Positions 19,880 to 27,062 of a stretch of 64,000 nucleotides of DNA are shown here, one piece after another (positions within the stretch are counted from its first letter, which is position 1; every line of letters starts with the position of its first letter). Both the position numbers and the translations under genes were made by a program. Below the pieces are notes generated by a model. It searched no databases and was not told the origin of the DNA. It was given only the letters and a program-made list of their open reading frames with translations. Source of the stretch: Actinoplanes missouriensis 431 (lineage in GTDB: Bacteria; Actinomycetota; Actinomycetes; Mycobacteriales; Micromonosporaceae); contig NC_017093.1 in the NCBI RefSeq assembly GCF_000284295.1, positions 7,502,001 to 7,566,000 on the forward strand. Reading direction: 5' to 3'.

Positions 19880-21085
19880 TCAGCCCTCCACCGTCGTCGC
19901 GATGATGTCGACGCGCCGGTCCCGCTGCAGGCACGACTGCTTCTCCGCCGGACACGTCGCGTCCCGCTCGCCTCGGCCGTCGTGCGTCACCCCGGAGATC
20001 CCGCTGTCCGTCAGAACCTTCGCGACCGCAGCCGCCCGGTCCTTCGACAGCTGGAGGTTGTGCCGGTCCGTGGCCCGCCGGTCGGCGTGCCCGATCACCT
20101 TGACCGCCTGGACCTGTGACGTCCGCATCCGGACGGCCAGCCCTTGCAGCGCGGCCCGGCCCTCCGGCCGGACGACCGCCGAGTCGGTGTCGAACAACAG
20201 ATCGGTCCGGACACTCGTCACCTCGTCGAGGTCCGGCGCACCGGCGTCCGGCACGAACGGCACGTCCGGATCCGCGGCGAGGCCGTCCGCGCCCGCCTCG
20301 CCGGACGACGCGACCGGGAGCGTCGAGACGTCGCAGAGCGCGGCCCCGGCCGTCTCGCACACCCGGCGCCAGAGATCGCCGAGGAAGGAGACGTGCCCAG
20401 TAGCCAGCGCGGACTGCCCGGATCCGGCATGCCCGACCCCCGCCATGATCAGGCTGACGCCGGCGAGCCGATCGCCCCAGCCGTCCCGCACCGGACAGGT
20501 CGCGATCAGCTTGTCGACGAAGGCCTGCTTGCCGGCGTTGCCGCCGGTCAGGTCGAGGCACCCGGTGGTGCTGAGGCCGTCGGTGCCGACCACCACGGTG
20601 CGAGGGCCGGCGTCGGCGTCCTTGACCGCGTCCGCCCCGGTGAAGATCCCGGCGAGCACATCGGTGCCGCCCATTTCCGGCTCGCTCCGGGTCGCCTCGC
20701 CGAGCCAGCCCTTGAGGCAGTCGGTGAACTCCGCCCGATCCAGCTCCCGGTTCTTCTCCCGGTTCGCGAACGAGAAAGTCAGCTTCTTCTCCGCGGTCCA
20801 CCGGACGCTGGAGGAGCTGCCGTCGAACGTACCGATGTAGACGTGATCGCCGCGCTGCACCGCCGCCTCGATCTGTGCGGTCAGCGCGGCGGTGTAGTCG
20901 GGGCGTCCGGTGCCGCCCCGCACCGAGGCGCTGACGTCGGCGAGCAATGCGGTCACGCCGCTCTCCGGGCGCTGCCGCTCGGTCATCCGGTCGCAGTCGG
21001 GCCCCTCGTCGTCGTCGCAGGCGGCCGCCGTCGTGGCGAGGAGGAGCAGGGCCAGCACCAGCAGCGCCCTTCCGAACCGGGCCAT
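19880..21085 (-). CDS. VWA-like and OmpA-like domain lipoprotein
   Basis: A 401-residue predicted lipoprotein. A signal peptide ends in the lipobox ATTAAAC (Cys 23). A von Willebrand A-like domain follows with a MIDAS-type ADVSASVR at about residues 49-56, GGTDVLAGI and VVVGTDGLSTTG. The C-terminal domain (about 275-401) is OmpA-like: FDTDSAVVRPEGRAAL, VIGHADRR, LSKDRAAAVAKVL and RDRRVDIIA. OmpA domains bind peptidoglycan. ATG at 21085 overlaps the preceding stop by one base (TGATG); the longer frame upstream is a shadow of the neighbour. It probably sits outside the membrane, fixed to the wall. Confidence 0.82.
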   Translation of the reverse strand: MARFGRALLVLALLLLATTAAACDDDEGPDCDRMTERQRPESGVTALLADVSASVRGGTGRPDYTAALTAQIEAAVQRGDHVYIGTFDGSSSSVRWTAEKKLTFSFANREKNRELDRAEFTDCLKGWLGEATRSEPEMGGTDVLAGIFTGADAVKDADAGPRTVVVGTDGLSTTGCLDLTGGNAGKQAFVDKLIATCPVRDGWGDRLAGVSLIMAGVGHAGSGQSALATGHVSFLGDLWRRVCETAGAALCDVSTLPVASSGEAGADGLAADPDVPFVPDAGAPDLDEVTSVRTDLLFDTDSAVVRPEGRAALQGLAVRMRTSQVQAVKVIGHADRRATDRHNLQLSKDRAAAVAKVLTDSGISGVTHDGRGERDATCPAEKQSCLQRDRRVDIIATTVEG

Positions 21086-21894
21086 CACGACCGCCCCGCG
21101 GTGAGCTCGGCCTCGACGATGTCCCGGACGAACTTCTTGTCCTCCTCGCCGAGCTGGCTGACGAAGGCAGCGGCGGCGGACGCGTACATCTCGGCGAACT
21201 CGAACATGCCGAGCTGCTGGTGGTCGAGGGCGGCCTGGCCGAGCACGTCGACCAGATCCTGGCCCTGCTGCCGGCGCTTGGCGGCCAGCAGATCCAGGAT
21301 CTCCGCGAAATGGCGGTCGGTGAGCTGGGCCGCGGCCACCGTGATCGGGCTGACGCCCAGCTCGGTGAGGACCTTCCGCCAGCGGGTGACGAGGTTCTCC
21401 ACCATCTCGGCCCGGCGGTTGCCGATCTCGGTCTCCTGGTTCAGGTCGATGCGGCGGAGCGCGTACGGGACCAGATGCTCCCGGACCCGTTCGTCCGGCC
21501 GGACCCGGATCTCGGCGACACACCGGATCTGCCCCCGATCGGTGTCGTAGCACCACTCGGCGGCCTCCGCCCGCATCCGCTCCTCGGCCGCGTCGGCGGC
21601 GTCCGGGTCGAACTGTCGGCCGATCCGCCAAACGCGCCGCCGCAGCTCGTCGTGCGCGGCCGGGGTGTACTCGACGGACTGCCGGACCAGCTCGCTGTGG
21701 TCCATCACCGAGCTGATCCACTCCAGGTCCGCGATCACCTGGAACTCGTAGACGTCTCCTTTGGACAGGACCGGGACGGCGTCGCCCGGAGTGCTGGGCC
21801 GGTGCCGCACTTCGGGCAGGGCCGAGCGGTCGGGTCCGGTGTCCGGGCCCGCAAGCCAGGTGCGGAACCGCCTCCACCACGATTGCTGTGCCAT
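21085..21894 (-). CDS. Divergent SPFH/band-7-like protein
   Basis: A 269-residue protein. The pattern (a strand-rich start with VYEFQVIADLEWIS, a helix with VRQSVEYTPAAHDELRRRVWRIGRQFDPDAADAAEERMRAE, then GQIRCVAEIRVRPDERVREHLVPYALRRIDLNQE and helical ends) resembles actinobacterial SPFH-like proteins. There is no N-terminal membrane helix, only a Trp/Arg-rich segment that could bind membranes. ATG at 21894 has an AGGAG site eight bases upstream. It lies 37 bases after the NTPase gene and is coupled to the lipoprotein gene. The SPFH assignment is tentative. Confidence 0.6.
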   Translation of the reverse strand: MAQQSWWRRFRTWLAGPDTGPDRSALPEVRHRPSTPGDAVPVLSKGDVYEFQVIADLEWISSVMDHSELVRQSVEYTPAAHDELRRRVWRIGRQFDPDAADAAEERMRAEAAEWCYDTDRGQIRCVAEIRVRPDERVREHLVPYALRRIDLNQETEIGNRRAEMVENLVTRWRKVLTELGVSPITVAAAQLTDRHFAEILDLLAAKRRQQGQDLVDVLGQAALDHQQLGMFEFAEMYASAAAAFVSQLGEEDKKFVRDIVEAELTAGRS

Positions 21895-21931: not shown

Positions 21932-24148
21932 TCAGAGCGAGGTGAGGAGCTCACGGGCGGACCTGCACTCCCGCGCCCACTGGCGCAGGGTGAATCGGGC
22001 CCGGCCGTCCAGCGGGGGTTTGAAGATCTCGGCGCACAGCGGGAGGAGCAGTTTCCGCAGTTCCCCGTCGCTGTCCGCGCGGCGCAGCCAGGCGTGCAGG
22101 ACCCACCAGGCCCGGCGTCCGGTGGTCGGGCCGGCGAGCGCGGCGCGCCACGGCTCGACGAGTGCGTCGGCGCCGCCGCGGTCCGCGGCCATGTCGGCGA
22201 GCAACCGCGGCCATTGCGACCGCGGGGCCTCCCCGGCCAGCACCGCGATGAGGATCAGCGAGCGGGCCGCGTGCACCTGGATCCGGTACAGGTCGTCACG
22301 CATCCAGGTGAGCAGTTCCTCGCGAATCTCCGCCGGGTGGTTCAGGTACAGGCGCTGCATGGTTCGGGCGATCGATGCGCTGCCGTTCAGGTCGGCGCGA
22401 GCAGCGAGGAGGTGGAGGTCGTCGAGCGCCTCGCGGACGAACAACTCGCCGAGCCGGGTCCCGTACGCCCGGGCCGCCGCGTCATGCAACCGGCTGTTCC
22501 GGGCGGCACGTGCCCACTCCCGGACCCGGCTCCGGATCGGGCCGAGGAGCCGGTCCTCCTCGGTGGCCGTGTCCACCGCCCACGCGGCGGCCTGCCGCAG
22601 GTCGCCCGACTCGGACAGCGCCCACGGGCGGATCAGCTCCCGCCATACCTCGTCGAAGTCGTGCGCGGCCAGCCACCCGGCGACCGAGGCCGCCCGCAGC
22701 CGGATGCCGGGCCGCTCCTGGCGGACCAGCCGGTCCAGCCACCGGCGTACCGGTGGGCGGCCCTGGTCGAAGTCGTTCCAGGCCACGTCCAGGATGTCGA
22801 ACGGCATCCGGACGTCCACGAACCGGACCCGGCGCGGCCGGTCGGCCGGGTCGAACCGGAGCAGGCTCGCCTGGTCCGGGACGCTGAGGATCTCCTCCAC
22901 GCCGCCGTCGAAGATCACCCGGTCCGGGTCGGCCTCACTGTTCTGCTCCGCCCAGAGGATCTCGTACAGCTGCTGCCCGACGTGGAAGACGTCGGCCAGG
23001 GTGTAGCCGACGAAAGCCGCGTACGCGATCTGCACCGCCTGCCGCCGCGGCTCCATCGGCGCCGAGGTGTCCTTCCGGCCGCCTTTGACAAGCGTGAACG
23101 CCAGGTCCCGGGCCCGGCCGCGAATCCGCCCGAGCACTGCCGCGAGCGAGCCCTGCTCGCCGTCCCAGCAGGACAGCGCCTGGGCGAGATCGGCCACCGA
23201 CGCCGGGCGCGGATGGGTCTCCAGCTGCTCCTTGATCTCCGGCAGGTCCAGGGCCCGTTCGATGAAATCCGGGTGACATGCGCCACCACAGACCGTGCAC
23301 GAGCCCACGCACGCGGACCGGCGGCGTAGCGCGAACCCCAGGTGCCGGCGCAGCACCGACTCCGGGTCCGGCAAGCCGGGCCGGATCTCGTAACGGCTCA
23401 GCGACGCACCGCTCGAGCCGGCCTGAGTTCCGATGATCACCAGGTACGCGTTCACGGCCGCGGCGAGCGTCGCGAACGTGTCCAGCAGAGCCGGCGTGAC
23501 GGTGCCGGGATCGGCGAGCTCCAGCACCACACCCGCGTCCGGGACCAGCAGGTCGTCCTGCCGGGCCAGGTCGACGAGCGACACACCCTTCTCCGGGAAG
23601 TGCACACCGTGCACCTCCTGTCCGGCCGCAGCCCTGGCGGCAAGCCGCTCGGCGAGAAAACGCCGCCCGGTGCCGGGCTCGCCGCACTCGTAGACGACCC
23701 TTTCGTTCCGCAACGTGGTGACGAACTCCGCGAAATTCGGCACCTGGACGAACGTCTGATCCGCCTCGGTGAGCTGGGCCGCGCTCCGGTGATAGCGCAG
23801 GGCGGTGACCTGCCGGCCGTCCGGCAGCTCGATCACCGTCATGGTGGCGTTGTCGCCGACGATGATGCCCTTGCTGTTCTTGATCGCGGTCTTGAAGTCG
23901 TGGTCGGACCGGGCCCCCTCGGGCTGCTCGCCCTGGCTGGTCCAGCTCTGGTCCGCCGCGTTCGAAGCAGACCTGTCGCCGCCCGGCGCGGCCTGATGGG
24001 AGCCGGCCGACTCGGCTTGGTGGGAGCCGGCCGGCGCGGCCTGACGGGGAGCGACCGGGGGCGCCTGAACAGCCGGTTCGGCGGGCTGCTCGGCCGGTTC
24101 CTTCGCCGCCGGCTCGTCCGGCGGCGGCGCGGCCTCCTCGGGATTCAT
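21932..24148 (-). CDS. Degenerate P-loop NTPase with GIIVGD motif and helical repeats
   Basis: A 738-residue protein. Residues 1-80 are Pro/Ala/Gln-rich and disordered. NSKGIIVGDNATMTVI (91-106) closely matches the C-terminus of the protein encoded just upstream. A P-loop NTPase-like domain follows, with GEPGTGRR at 156-163, where Arg replaces the usual Walker A Lys. Four cysteines (280, 284, 287, 291) could bind zinc. The rest is helical and HEAT-like. It shares a four-base overlap (ATGA) with the cyclase-like gene. The layout resembles NTPase switches of bacterial conflict systems, with the motif as a docking or amyloid-like signalling element; both are inference. Confidence 0.7.
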   Translation of the reverse strand: MNPEEAAPPPDEPAAKEPAEQPAEPAVQAPPVAPRQAAPAGSHQAESAGSHQAAPGGDRSASNAADQSWTSQGEQPEGARSDHDFKTAIKNSKGIIVGDNATMTVIELPDGRQVTALRYHRSAAQLTEADQTFVQVPNFAEFVTTLRNERVVYECGEPGTGRRFLAERLAARAAAGQEVHGVHFPEKGVSLVDLARQDDLLVPDAGVVLELADPGTVTPALLDTFATLAAAVNAYLVIIGTQAGSSGASLSRYEIRPGLPDPESVLRRHLGFALRRRSACVGSCTVCGGACHPDFIERALDLPEIKEQLETHPRPASVADLAQALSCWDGEQGSLAAVLGRIRGRARDLAFTLVKGGRKDTSAPMEPRRQAVQIAYAAFVGYTLADVFHVGQQLYEILWAEQNSEADPDRVIFDGGVEEILSVPDQASLLRFDPADRPRRVRFVDVRMPFDILDVAWNDFDQGRPPVRRWLDRLVRQERPGIRLRAASVAGWLAAHDFDEVWRELIRPWALSESGDLRQAAAWAVDTATEEDRLLGPIRSRVREWARAARNSRLHDAAARAYGTRLGELFVREALDDLHLLAARADLNGSASIARTMQRLYLNHPAEIREELLTWMRDDLYRIQVHAARSLILIAVLAGEAPRSQWPRLLADMAADRGGADALVEPWRAALAGPTTGRRAWWVLHAWLRRADSDGELRKLLLPLCAEIFKPPLDGRARFTLRQWARECRSARELLTSL

Positions 24149-24939
24149 TCCTCGGCCCCGCCCCGGTACTGATGGACCGTGCCGTAGTCGCCGACGATGA
24201 TGCCGGAGCTGCGCTTGATACGGACTCCACCGGGTGGGGCCGCCGGCTTCGGCTTCGGATCACCGACCGGCGCCCGCCCCGCCTCGTCCGCTGCCGGTGC
24301 CCGGACCACCTCGTGAGCGACCTGCGCCCGGACCGCCCCGTCCACATCCGGCGGCTCGAACCCCGGCAGGTACAACCAGGCGATCTGCTCCCGGCCCTCG
24401 ATCCTCAGCTCCAAGCGCCGGAAATGCCGCGGGTCCAGGCCCAGCGCCCGGTACGGCACCGCCCGCTGATACACCGTGTCGGACACCAGCGCGCAGATCG
24501 GCGCGTCCGGCACCGCCGTCATGGCCTCCCGGTTGGCGGGGTGCTCCTGGAGCCGGGCGGCGATCACCAGCGGGTCCCCGCCGCGCGGCACCCCCCGCGC
24601 GTCGACCTGGATGTCTCCCGAGTCGAGGCCCAGCCGGAGCCGGAGCTGGTGTTCCTTCGTCTTGTTGCCGTTGTACCGGACCAGCGCGGCCGCCAGCCGG
24701 GGCAGAGCCGTGGCGAGCAGCGTCGCTGGGGCGACGCCGGCCGGCGCCACGCTCATCTCGCCGTCGCCGCGGCTGCTGCGGGCCCACTCGCCGGGCTGCC
24801 CCGCCGCGGCGATAGCTGCGCCGATCGCCTCCTCGGCCGCGAGTCCGAGTTCCGAGTGCCGTGGGTAGCCTCCGGGGCTGGACCTGACGATGTCCGACGA
24901 CACGGCAGTGCCGGGCCGGGGAAGAGTTTCCTCGTACAT
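24145..24939 (-). CDS. Class III nucleotide-cyclase-fold protein with C-terminal GIIVGD motif
   Basis: A 264-residue protein. Residues 10-192 follow the class III adenylate/guanylate cyclase pattern: SSDIVRS with metal-binding-type Asp 16, RGDGEMSV with Asp 59, LRLRLGLDSGDIQVDARGVPRGG and IAARLQ. Both metal aspartates and Arg 129 are present. The transition-state Asn normally four residues before that Arg reads Val, so catalysis is uncertain. A Pro/Ala/Arg linker leads to SSGIIVGDYGTVHQ at 244-257, the motif shared with the next protein. Start is ATG at 24939. Such proteins are common in actinobacterial conflict islands; Pycsar cyclases (PycC) have the same fold. Confidence 0.75.
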   Translation of the reverse strand: MYEETLPRPGTAVSSDIVRSSPGGYPRHSELGLAAEEAIGAAIAAAGQPGEWARSSRGDGEMSVAPAGVAPATLLATALPRLAAALVRYNGNKTKEHQLRLRLGLDSGDIQVDARGVPRGGDPLVIAARLQEHPANREAMTAVPDAPICALVSDTVYQRAVPYRALGLDPRHFRRLELRIEGREQIAWLYLPGFEPPDVDGAVRAQVAHEVVRAPAADEAGRAPVGDPKPKPAAPPGGVRIKRSSGIIVGDYGTVHQYRGGAEE

Positions 24940-25029: not shown

Positions 25030-25707
25030 TTACCGGATGCCCGCGATCTTCTCGATCGCCGCGAGGTTCTTCACCAAGATCGATCGGTGTTCAGTCTCCA
25101 AATAGCCCAGACCTGCGAATTTGCGCAGAATCCGGTGTACCGACACGGCCGATGCACCCACACGCATCGCCAGGTCGCCCTGGGTGCACCACACCCGCTC
25201 GGGTTCCGGTGAATGTGAATCCACCGCATTTACATAGTCACAGAGAGCAACCGCAACGCGCCCTTCGACGTCCGCCGAGGCGGTTACGAAGCGGTTCTCC
25301 GCGGCACGCAGCCGCTCGGTCAGCGAGCGGGCGAGCACCCGGTACGCACGCGGGTGCGAGTCCAGGTACCTGTCGAAGACCTCACCCGCGAGCCGCTGCA
25401 CCAGCACGCGGCGATACGCCACAGCGGAGGCGGACCGCGGCCGCCGGTCCAGATGGGCGACCTCGCCCAGCAGATCGCCGCGCGTACAGGAGGCGACCCG
25501 GTGCTGACCCCCGCCCAGCTTCGACACCATGATCCGGACCTCACCGGAGTGCACCACGAAGACGTGGTTGCCCGGCTCGCCCTGGTGGAGGATGTACACC
25601 CCGCCGTTGTAGGCCTCGAACCCGCCGAGCTTGACGAGGTCGCTCCGGTCCAGCGCCGGCAACCGCCCGACGAACGACGTCTGCGGCCAGGGCTCGATGT
25701 CGCTCAA
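25030..25707 (-). CDS. Crp/Fnr-family regulator 2 with cyclic-nucleotide pocket
   Basis: A 225-residue protein with an N-terminal cyclic-nucleotide-binding barrel, a long dimer helix and a C-terminal winged helix (WCTQGDLAMRVGASAVSVHRILRKF). The phosphate-binding cassette is well kept: GDLLGEVAHLDRRPRSAS, with Glu 82 and Arg 91 in the positions that hold the ribose and phosphate of cAMP in CRP. I see no Fe-S cysteine cluster as in FNR. The TTG start at 25707 is supported by GGAGGAG six bases upstream. It lies between the PycTM-like and cyclase-like genes, so it may sense a product of the cyclase (inference). Confidence 0.88.
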   Translation of the reverse strand: MSDIEPWPQTSFVGRLPALDRSDLVKLGGFEAYNGGVYILHQGEPGNHVFVVHSGEVRIMVSKLGGGQHRVASCTRGDLLGEVAHLDRRPRSASAVAYRRVLVQRLAGEVFDRYLDSHPRAYRVLARSLTERLRAAENRFVTASADVEGRVAVALCDYVNAVDSHSPEPERVWCTQGDLAMRVGASAVSVHRILRKFAGLGYLETEHRSILVKNLAAIEKIAGIR

Positions 25708-25764: not shown

Positions 25765-26346
25765 TCAGAGGGCGACGGCGAGGAAGAGGACGGCGGCGAG
25801 CATGCCGAAGACCGTCCCGGCCCGGATCCAGCGGAACTTCAGCACCGCGAGCCGGCTCAGCCAGCACAACTGGCTGACCAGCCCGGCCATGGTGTCCCCG
25901 GCCGCCTGTTCCAGGCAGCGGCGGACCCGGTCCGGGTCTCGCAGGCGGTACACGTGTCCGAAATAGGCGATCAACTCCAGGTCCGAGGCGCCCCGGGTCC
26001 GCGGGAACAGGGCGAGCGCGAACGCGGCCGCCGCCAGCGCGACGCAGATCAGGCCGGCGGGCACCATCCCGGCCGGCGCGCCGGCCACCGGCCAGGCCCG
26101 TTCCAGCGGAACCCCCCAGAGCGCGATCAGGCCGGCCGTCCCGGCGCCCAGGATGGAGAGCCACTGCGCTGCCTTCGCGTCGGCCCGCCGGACCTCCTCC
26201 CGAGTCTCCGCGATCAGCCGCCGGGTGAGCCGGACCTCGGCCGAGGCGTCGCTGCGGGTCACCGGCGCGGTCGGCGCGCCCACCATTCCTTGATTCATGC
26301 CTTCAGGCTGACGGTCCGCTCGGGTGCGCATCCGGTCGATCGTCAC
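25765..26346 (-). CDS. PycTM-like (Pycsar effector) membrane protein
   Basis: A 193-residue protein matching the layout of the Pycsar effector domain (PycTM). A helix LTRRLIAETREEVRRADAKA (40-59) carries the conserved D-x-K-A at 56-59. Two membrane helices follow (63-79 and 92-113), then a soluble part (YFGHVYRLRDPDRVRRCL), a helix QLCWLSRLAVLKFRWIR, and a last membrane helix (173-192). In Pycsar defence, PycTM responds to cCMP or cUMP made by a PycC cyclase and damages the membrane. GTG at 26346 overlaps the preceding Crp stop (GTGA); ATG at 26298 is an alternative start. The domain call is by pattern, not by search. Confidence 0.72.
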   Translation of the reverse strand: MTIDRMRTRADRQPEGMNQGMVGAPTAPVTRSDASAEVRLTRRLIAETREEVRRADAKAAQWLSILGAGTAGLIALWGVPLERAWPVAGAPAGMVPAGLICVALAAAAFALALFPRTRGASDLELIAYFGHVYRLRDPDRVRRCLEQAAGDTMAGLVSQLCWLSRLAVLKFRWIRAGTVFGMLAAVLFLAVAL

Positions 26347-27062
26347 GGTGCCTCTGTCGACATCGACACAGAACGACCGAGCGCGCGCAGCACGTCCGGC
26401 TGCAGAACCACGATGAGCCGACGCCCGGTCTGCACGGTCTTGCGGCTGCGGAGCACCCGCATGGTGCGCGCCACCACCTCGCGGGACACACCGACGGAGG
26501 AAGCCAGGTCCTGCTGGGAGAGGCCCAGCTCGATGCGGACGGCGCCCCCGGGCTCCGGCTTTCCGGTCCGGTCCATGAGGTCGACCAGGAAGACGATCAA
26601 ACGGCCGTCACCGTTGCTGGATCCGAACTGCATCCGCTGCCGATCCGACTCCCGCAGACTGTTGGCGAGGTGCCGGGAGATCGCGAGGGCTACCGATGGC
26701 TCCTTCACGATGCAGGCGTCGAGGCGGTCGCTGAGGATCACGACCCCGGTCGCCTCGGTGAGCGTCGCGACGGTCGCCATCCGCGGCCGCCCGTCGAGCG
26801 CAGACATCTCACCGACGATGTCACCGGGACCGCGGAGCGCCAGCACAGCGGTCCACCCGCGCCGCGAGGTTGCGGTCACCTTCACCCAGCCGTCCTCGAT
26901 CAGGATCACGTGCCGGGTCGGGTCGCCCTGGTGGAAGAGGGGCGTCCCGGCCGGGTAGGTCTGCCGGACGCCCGCGTCCACCAGCACCTTATAGGCCTCC
27001 GGGCTGAGATGCTTCGCGAAGCTGCCCGTGACCGGCTCCGGAAGAGGCAGAGTGACCACCAC
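26343..27062 (-). CDS. Crp/Fnr-family regulator 1 with cyclic-nucleotide pocket
   Basis: A 239-residue protein: cyclic-nucleotide-binding barrel (about 10-125), dimer helix, and winged helix (LGLSQQDLASSVGVSREVVARTMRVLRS). The phosphate-binding cassette reads GDIVGEMSALDGRPRMAT, with Glu 85 and Arg 94 kept. Start is GTG at 27062, or the next GTG at 27059. It is the first gene of the minus-strand cluster and overlaps the PycTM-like gene by four bases, so the effector is translated together with a potential cyclic-nucleotide sensor. It is diverged from its neighbour regulator 2, so this is not a recent duplication. Confidence 0.88.
   Translation of the reverse strand: MVVTLPLPEPVTGSFAKHLSPEAYKVLVDAGVRQTYPAGTPLFHQGDPTRHVILIEDGWVKVTATSRRGWTAVLALRGPGDIVGEMSALDGRPRMATVATLTEATGVVILSDRLDACIVKEPSVALAISRHLANSLRESDRQRMQFGSSNGDGRLIVFLVDLMDRTGKPEPGGAVRIELGLSQQDLASSVGVSREVVARTMRVLRSRKTVQTGRRLIVVLQPDVLRALGRSVSMSTEAP

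What the first reader, a model, noticed from the sequence alone, without database searches (positions are those of the whole stretch)
21932..24939. Shared GIIVGD motif at the C-terminus of one protein and near the N-terminus of the next
SSGIIVGDYGTVHQ ends the cyclase-fold protein (residues 244-257) and SKGIIVGDNATMTVI stands at residues 92-106 of the NTPase, after disordered tails. Such short Gly-rich beta motifs, paired between an NTPase and a partner, resemble bacterial amyloid signalling sequences. This may be a cross-seeding link that brings the proteins together.
Basis: partly seen in the sequence, partly recalled or inferred. Interest (0 to 1): 0.75.

Follow-up and report, generated by a model that had tools for sequence, protein, structure and literature searches.

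The report
Receptor and cyclase share amyloid-like tag
Two neighbouring bacterial proteins, a receptor-like protein and a cyclic-nucleotide-making enzyme, carry the same short sticky tag, and related gene pairs carry tags that differ from pair to pair but mostly match within a pair, so the receptor probably finds and switches on its enzyme by tag-to-tag assembly.

Summary
IKRSSGIIVGDYGTV (cyclase-fold protein, 241-255) and IKNSKGIIVGDNATM (neighbour, 89-103) are at the stated places. GIIVGD is encoded only twice in the 8.77 Mb genome, 0.3 kb apart in these genes.

It is not chance. In 52 cyclase/NTPase pairs (window included), 42 cyclase tails match their own partner's N-terminus better than 95 of 100 shuffles. 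Motifs differ between pairs but match within (0 of 50,000 permutations). In four genomes with several pairs, 9 of 9 tails prefer their own partner. Against this, the three closest relatives fail.

The cyclase has a class III fold with both metal aspartates; the partner is STAND/NLR-like (degenerate P-loop, HEAT repeats). The operon also holds a PycTM effector and two Crp-like regulators.

Best reading: an NLR-like receptor recruits or activates a nucleotide cyclase by pair-specific homotypic assembly, probably amyloid templating as in BASS systems; the cyclic nucleotide drives PycTM and/or Crp. The motif resembles an amyloid BASS3 peptide but lacks the RHIM glutamine. Amyloid formation and cyclase activity are untested. 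The review passages I saw name Bell, CHAT and TIR as BASS effectors, not cyclases.

The parts
24145..24939 (-). class III nucleotide-cyclase-fold protein (264 aa); C-terminal tail carries the motif
   Evidence: ORF; AF2 pLDDT 83.5; VIA-align Z 18.3 to 3mr7, 165 residues, rmsd 2.4; profile vs PDB sequences 3mr7 E 7.5e-7; metal Asp D16 and D59 in 35 of 35, R129 in 33 of 35
24175..24219 (-). effector-side motif IKRSSGIIVGDYGTV (residues 241-255)
21932..24148 (-). STAND/NLR-like receptor candidate (738 aa): low-confidence N-terminus, motif, AAA+/STAND-like P-loop core with Walker A Lys replaced by Arg, HEAT-like solenoid
   Evidence: Pfam nSTAND3 E 7.7e-4, below cut-off; at E 0.01 HEAT_2 hits 15 of 34 and nSTAND3 5 of 34 homologues; model 116-349 vs AAA+ 3whk Z 10.5 (one of 50 rows), 334-738 vs HEAT-type proteins Z up to 13.5, a level the tool calls unspecific for repeats; GxGR in 28 of 34
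23840..23884 (-). receptor-side motif IKNSKGIIVGDNATM (residues 89-103)
25765..26346 (-). PycTM-family (Pycsar effector) membrane protein, 193 aa
   Evidence: Pfam PF18967 E 2.6e-11; PADLOC PycTM E 6.8e-15
26343..27062 (-). Crp-like cNMP-binding regulator 1 (239 aa)
   Evidence: cNMP_binding E 4.6e-19, HTH_Crp_2 E 8.3e-16; a Crp-family homologue within about 5 kb of 44 of 52 pairs
25030..25707 (-). Crp-like cNMP-binding regulator 2 (225 aa)
   Evidence: cNMP_binding E 4.6e-17, HTH_Crp_2 E 2e-8
21085..21894 (-). conserved third gene (p289), no convincing family
   Evidence: homologue near 33 of 52 pairs; no Pfam family in more than 1 of 26 members; no credible PDB sequence match; a 16-bit PADLOC GajB hit, E 8.4e-4, that I take as spurious
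19880..21085 (-). lipoprotein-like vWA + OmpA protein (401 aa), same strand, abutting
   Evidence: OmpA E 3.5e-12, VWA_2 E 2.4e-4; homologue also downstream in L032
18530..19876 (-). membrane protein by eye (448 aa), same strand, last gene of the run
   Evidence: homologue also in L032

Best explanation
The shared motif is a pair-specific homotypic coupling tag of the bacterial amyloid-signalling kind. Shown by sequence: the tag sits at the C-terminus of a class III cyclase-fold protein and at the N-terminus of the adjacent STAND/NLR-like protein, and across relatives it diversifies while mostly staying matched within each pair. Inferred: when the receptor senses a trigger it oligomerises; its N-terminal tags nucleate a cross-beta assembly that templates the cyclase tails; crowding lets the cyclase domains dimerise and make a cyclic mononucleotide; that messenger acts on the membrane effector PycTM and/or the Crp-like regulators of the same operon, as in an abortive-infection (Pycsar-like) defence. 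Estimates: functional tag pairing about 0.85; amyloid as its physical form about 0.6; cyclic-nucleotide output through PycTM/Crp about 0.6.
For: Pair matching: 42 of 52 pairs (window included) reach the 95/100 shuffle level; mean score 45.8 for true against 23.4 for false pairs, 0 of 50,000 permutations; own partner ranks first for 21, in the top five for 38 of 52 tails. It holds for one representative per cluster (22 clusters at 50% identity: 15 rank first, 0 of 20,000 permutations) and inside genomes holding several pairs: 9 of 9 tails in four genomes, including the window and its paralogue L040. Of 344 adjacent same-strand gene pairs in 61 loci, 14 score 40 or more, and 13 of those 14 are this cyclase, or in L078 its TIR neighbour, with the next gene. 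Layout and 4-bp gene overlap as for BASS. Alignment to the amyloid-positive BASS3 peptide: window NTPase 2/1000 shuffles, window tail 25/1000, L033 tail 2/1000, L092 tail 0/1000. Cyclase fold and metal aspartates. PycTM and Crp neighbours. In L078 a TIR protein between cyclase and NTPase bears the same kind of tag.
Against: Ten of 52 pairs do not pass, among them the three nearest relatives (L032, L033, L092). There the cyclase tails of L033 and L092 match the window's NTPase (48, 43) better than their own NTPases (21, 22). The L032 tail and the paralogue L040 tail do not resemble the BASS3 peptide (202/1000 and 364/1000 shuffles). The window motif lacks the RHIM glutamine (GIIVG, not G-[IV]-Q-[IV]-G). 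Half of the receptor-side motif is predicted as a folded hairpin. The cyclase lacks the residue I recall as the class III transition-state Asn (V in 22 of 35, N in 10), so activity is not assured. The Walker A lysine is Arg in 28 of 34 receptors, so ATP-driven oligomerisation is doubtful. No amyloid assay or predictor was available.
Confidence: 0.62

Rival explanations
1. The tags bind each other by ordinary (non-amyloid) beta pairing or a small beta-roll, giving a stable receptor-cyclase complex without templated polymerisation, as proposed for effector-associated domains (EADs).
For: EADs show the same two-copy adjacent-gene layout with closer similarity of adjacent copies, and EAD10 has mixed alpha+beta character (passages of PMC7159879). 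In L053 the cyclase's motif-sharing partner is an EAD10 protein with hydrophobic segments, and the EAD10 match (residues 14-82) covers the motif. The window receptor has a confident hairpin just after the motif core.
Against: No Pfam EAD hit in the window cyclase or NTPase at E 0.1, nor in 35 cyclases and 34 NTPases at E 0.01. The tags lie in or at the end of low-confidence tails. The nearest published peptide I compared (BASS3) aggregates as amyloid.
Confidence: 0.28
2. Chance or compositional resemblance of glycine-rich tails, with no functional pairing.
For: Short motif; three closest relatives fail the pair test; low-complexity Pro/Ala tails inflate unmasked scores.
Against: 0 of 50,000 permutations with masking; 13 of the 14 best of 344 adjacent gene pairs belong to this system; two GIIVGD sites in the whole genome, both here.
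Confidence: 0.03
3. The tag pairing is real, but the cyclase domain is a binding or regulatory pseudo-enzyme and the output is the Crp-like regulators or another effector, not a cyclic nucleotide acting on PycTM.
For: Recalled transition-state Asn replaced by Val in 22 of 35; catalytically inactive cyclase versions are reported in related conflict systems (PMC7159879 passage); PADLOC gives no PycC hit for the cyclase; PycTM was detected near only 15 of 52 pairs by my model.
Against: Both metal aspartates in 35 of 35 and R129 in 33 of 35; cNMP-binding Crp homologue near 44 of 52; my PycTM model missed some: L050 passes the Pfam PycTM cut-off and L037 and L085 hit it weakly.
Confidence: 0.3

Closest known systems
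BASS bacterial amyloid signalling sequences with NLR and Bell/TIR/CHAT effectors (Dyrka 2020, seen only through passages of PMC7889193, PMC8086366, PMC12261475)
   Same: Motif at effector C-terminus and at receptor N-terminus, adjacent or overlapping genes, several motif families, described from filamentous actinobacteria and cyanobacteria.
   Different: The effector here is a class III cyclase-fold protein; receptor P-loop mostly degenerate; no BASS profile could be run, so which BASS families these tags belong to, if any, is open.
BASS3 / RHIM-like amyloid motif (Frankia ORT49035.1 peptide)
   Same: Ungapped alignment over 13 residues of the window tail and 11 of the window NTPase; the tails of relatives L092 and L050 contain GIQVGD.
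   Different: Window motif is GIIVGD in both partners: the RHIM glutamine is replaced by isoleucine.
Pycsar (PycC + PycTM/PycTIR)
   Same: Class III cyclase fold (7r65 cUMP synthase Z 16.0), PycTM effector and cNMP-binding proteins in the same operon.
   Different: No PycC HMM hit; separate tag-coupled receptor; Crp-like regulators are stand-alone with HTH.
EAD / bDLD-coupled conflict systems (Kaur 2020, 2021; passages of PMC7159879 and PMC8195603)
   Same: Duplicated coupling module on a core protein and on the effector encoded next door; cNMP cyclase among the linked signalling domains.
   Different: A roughly 15-25-residue Gly-rich motif replaces a folded domain; no MoxR among the nine neighbouring proteins scanned.

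Membership tests
BASS NLR amyloid signalosome | same short motif at C-terminus of effector and N-terminus of adjacent receptor | tested here: met
BASS NLR amyloid signalosome | receptor has NLR layout (STAND NTPase plus repeats) | tested here: inconclusive
   nSTAND3 19.6 bits, under the 27.2 cut-off; 5 of 34 homologues hit nSTAND3, 15 of 34 HEAT_2 at E 0.01; AAA+ match Z 10.5; Walker A Lys to Arg in 28 of 34
BASS NLR amyloid signalosome | effector is a Bell (or CHAT/TIR) domain | tested here: not met
   class III cyclase fold; one TIR protein with the same kind of tag in L078
BASS NLR amyloid signalosome | motif scores in a BASS1-10 profile | not testable with these tools
   profiles not held; only one published peptide compared
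BASS NLR amyloid signalosome | motif peptides form amyloid and cross-seed | not testable with these tools
   needs bench work
RHIM / BASS3 motif | core G-(I,V)-Q-(I,V)-G | tested here: not met
   GIIVG in both window partners; relative L092 tail has GIQVG; definition from PMC7885112 passage
Pycsar | pyrimidine cyclase PycC | tested here: inconclusive
   fold and metal Asp agree, but no PADLOC PycC hit at E 0.1; product unknown
Pycsar | PycTM or PycTIR effector beside the cyclase | tested here: met
   PF18967 E 2.6e-11
Effector-associated domains (EADs) | a folded EAD on both partners | tested here: not met
   no EAD in Pfam scans of the window pair at E 0.1 or of 35 cyclases and 34 NTPases at E 0.01; EAD10 on the L053 partner

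The most novel reading that the evidence does not exclude
An amyloid-to-second-messenger relay: a STAND/NLR-like receptor switches on a nucleotide cyclase by prion-like templating, and an evolving set of private tags keeps paralogous relays in one cell from cross-firing. It would offer one answer to how Pycsar-type cyclases are activated.
Probability: 0.45. Interest if true: 0.88.

Novelty: new variant of a known kind. Interest (0 to 1): 0.7.

Why it matters
Amyloid signalling in bacteria is described (PMC7889193, passages) from NLRs paired with Bell and, less often, CHAT or TIR domains. If the effector can be a nucleotide cyclase feeding a PycTM membrane effector and Crp regulators, amyloid templating and cyclic-nucleotide immunity are one pathway, with amplification after assembly. 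What activates Pycsar cyclases is discussed only as possibilities in PMC11224242 (passages). Fifty-two natural pairs, with two or three co-resident in four genomes, make tag specificity, insulation and co-evolution directly testable.

Tried and rejected
Considered and rejected: chance similarity. Pfam, NCBIfam and PADLOC gave no name for the cyclase, and Pfam over 35 homologues gave one hit in one member, taken as spurious. PADLOC hits of p289 to GajB (E 8.4e-4) and of the NTPase to PDC-S73 (E 0.019) were taken as spurious. PDB sequence search with the single cyclase found nothing while the profile did. The first gapped, unmasked pair test (35 pairs, 11 rank first) was replaced by the ungapped, masked one because Pro/Ala tails dominated some scores; masking in turn hides real-looking matches (L052, L054 and L081 score 56, 63 and 65 there). 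Other G-[IV]-Q-[IV]-G-D sites in the genome (3 DNA hits with a pattern that leaves out GTG codons) lie in ORFs that look like antisense noise (judged by eye) and were dropped; the regions fetched were not analysed further. Short-peptide searches of the own genome found only the query itself or nothing; since the L092 peptide did not even find the window motif, that absence says little. Foldseek for the receptor was filled by HEAT/armadillo proteins; an Avs-type STAND (9jap) appears at rank 24, and no STAND is among the 50 VIA rows shown, which does not exclude it. p289 resembles no family; my thought of a band-7/SPFH-like protein is recall only. The 50 of 102 loci without an NTPase homologue within 1.5 kb were not tested for a distant partner.
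Full report
Observation. The cyclase-fold gene 24145-24939 (-) overlaps the 738-aa gene 21932-24148 (-) by 4 bp. The aligned cores are IKRSSGIIVGDYGTV and IKNSKGIIVGDNATM (BLOSUM62 score 47). A pattern that allows every codon choice for GIIVGD occurs exactly twice on either strand of the 8.77 Mb genome: these two sites, about 0.3 kb apart. In the window's 36 adjacent same-strand gene pairs the next best tail-to-head score is 30. Shuffling the 45-residue tail reaches 47 in 8 of 5,000 trials unmasked and in 0 of 100 masked.

The proteins. The cyclase-fold protein has no Pfam, NCBIfam or PADLOC hit. Its 35-member profile finds class III cyclases in the PDB (3mr7, E 7.5e-7). Its AlphaFold2 model (pLDDT 83.5) matches class III cyclases (Foldseek 2w01 E 2.3e-8; VIA-align 3mr7 Z 18.3, rmsd 2.4 over 165 residues; cUMP synthase 7r65 Z 16.0). 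D16 and D59, at the positions I take as the metal aspartates, are in 35 of 35 members and R129 in 33 of 35. The position I recall as the transition-state Asn is Val in 22 and Asn in 10. The partner (pLDDT 81.6) has low confidence over nearly all of its first 93 residues, an AAA+/STAND-like core (116-349, 3whk Z 10.5, one of the 50 rows shown) and a HEAT-like solenoid (334-738, Z up to 13.5, a level the tool calls unspecific for repeats). nSTAND3 is a sub-threshold hit in the window protein and hits 5 of 34 homologues at E 0.01; HEAT_2 hits 15 of 34. The Walker A lysine is Arg in 28 of 34, so 'NTPase' should be read as STAND-like with a degenerate P-loop.

The operon. Upstream on the same strand lie a Crp-like protein, a PycTM-family protein (PF18967 E 2.6e-11) and a second Crp-like protein. 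Downstream lie the conserved gene p289, a vWA-OmpA lipoprotein-like gene and a membrane protein. Within about 5 kb of the 52 cyclase/NTPase pairs (window included) a Crp homologue lies near 44, p289 near 33 and PycTM (own model) near 15. Of ten further small proteins, including homologues from loci without an adjacent NTPase, five pass the Pfam PycTM cut-off, four hit it weakly and one has no hit.

Homologues. In 150 family genomes 61 have a cyclase homologue at E 1e-3. In 197 class-level genomes searched with a relative, 31 have one at E 1e-8. Both counts include the window's own genome. I fetched 60 of the 106 places (one of the 106 is the window) and 40 regions for the 62 places, plus the one named hit, L092, Paractinoplanes maris. 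With the window that makes 102 loci, all with a cyclase hit. Of these, 52 (47 genomes) have an NTPase homologue downstream within 1.5 kb; the other 50 were left out of the pair test. Loci were chosen by the cyclase, not by the motif.

Pair test. Last 45 residues of the cyclase against 170 N-terminal residues of each NTPase, ungapped, low complexity masked: mean 45.8 for true pairs, 23.4 for false; 0 of 50,000 permutations reach the true mean (largest 29.3); own partner first for 21, top three 31, top five 38 of 52; 42 of 52 beat at least 95 of 100 shuffles. One representative per cluster: 10 clusters (40% identity) 6 first; 22 (50%) 15 first; 34 (60%) 18 first; 0 of 20,000 permutations each. 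Four genomes hold two or three pairs; for all 9 tails the own partner scores best, e.g. window tail 47 own and 27 on L040, L040 tail 76 own and 18 on the window. Control: of 344 adjacent same-strand gene pairs in 61 of the 102 loci, 14 score 40 or more. Twelve are the cyclase with its next gene, one is a TIR protein with the NTPase in L078, and one (L088) is unrelated. Examples of tag types: GEMRVTGQNAVGHGAMAIGSI / GEMRVTGQNATGHGATAIGSI (L057); NHGPTAIGDNANA / NRGATAIGDNSSA (L085); KVVGGDEINY / KVVGGDEITY (L108); GDQIGGASHRADGHG / GDDIGGASHRATDGG (L110).

Results against. The pairs that fail one search are L032, L033, L052, L054, L058, L078, L081, L091, L092 and L109. L052, L054 and L081 look lost to masking (they score 56, 63 and 65 unmasked and gapped), and L078 has the TIR gene in between. 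L032, L033 and L092 are the closest relatives of the window that I found and fail without such excuse. There the tails of L033 and L092 match the window's NTPase (48, 43) but not their own (21, 22). Their NTPases still carry a weaker stretch with [IV]-G-[DP] at the same place (by eye).

Relation to BASS. The layout is that of BASS: tag at effector C-terminus and NLR N-terminus, adjacent or overlapping genes, mainly actinobacteria and cyanobacteria (PMC7889193, passages). The Frankia BASS3 peptide with cross-beta spectra and Congo red staining (PMC8086366, section 13 read) aligns to the window NTPase (33; 2 of 1000 shuffles), the window tail (27; 25 of 1000), the L033 tail (28; 2 of 1000) and the L092 tail ITNSDGIQVGDNNEQNN (47; 0 of 1000), but not to the tails of L032 (202 of 1000) or of the paralogue L040 (364 of 1000). 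The RHIM core G-(I,V)-Q-(I,V)-G (PMC7885112, passage) is met by L092's tail but not by the window (GIIVG twice), so I do not file the window motif as RHIM/BASS3; it works like one and is probably a derivative. The review names Bell, CHAT and TIR as BASS-linked domains. The rows listed by my searches (the best 10-20 of each) showed no paper whose title or abstract start joins amyloid motifs to nucleotide cyclases, but Dyrka 2020 itself is not held. EADs provide an analogous two-copy coupling, with cNMP cyclases among their cargo (PMC7159879 and PMC8195603, passages). In L053 the cyclase's tag is shared with an EAD10 protein.

Mechanism. Shown: pair-specific shared tags on a cyclase-fold effector and a STAND/HEAT-like receptor, next to PycTM and cNMP-binding regulators. 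Inferred: receptor clustering nucleates tag assembly, cyclase domains are brought together as dimers, and a cyclic mononucleotide acts on PycTM and/or Crp. The class III cyclase AnPycC is a dimer with its catalytic centres at the interface (PMC11224242, passage), which makes induced proximity a natural switch. Whether the assembly is amyloid and whether the enzyme is active need bench work.

Noticed in passing
window 21932-24148 and homologues: Walker A lysine replaced by Arg (GxGR) in 28 of 34 receptor homologues: the 'NTPase' may be a pseudo-NTPase like the inactive STANDs of other conflict systems.
   Followed up: partly
L078:7681-8817: A TIR protein (PF13676 E 1.9e-8) sits between cyclase and NTPase and bears the same kind of tag (ARDIYGD); its second half looks by eye like a decayed cyclase domain: one receptor, two effectors.
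   Followed up: partly
L053:7681-8493: Cyclase whose next gene is not an NTPase but an EAD10 protein with hydrophobic segments, sharing the tag: a possible link between EAD10 and amyloid-like tags.
   Followed up: partly
L040 (own genome, G000:C1:2523050-2537541): Second cyclase/NTPase pair in the same genome with an unrelated tag (PAQFG[NS]HNEM type), a natural insulation control.
   Followed up: yes
window 21085-21894: Conserved third gene (near 33 of 52 pairs) with no recognisable family; not folded here.
   Followed up: partly
window 24145-24939, residue 125: Position recalled as the class III transition-state Asn is Val in 22 of 35 cyclases, while the metal Asp pair is invariant.
   Followed up: partly
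L055 and L060: Cyclases with similar Gly-rich tails (FNGPVAAGDH, VNGPAAFGDH) but with a 586/593-aa protein next door (L060's has a weak membrane-protein hit) and no NTPase homologue found; partner unknown.
   Followed up: no
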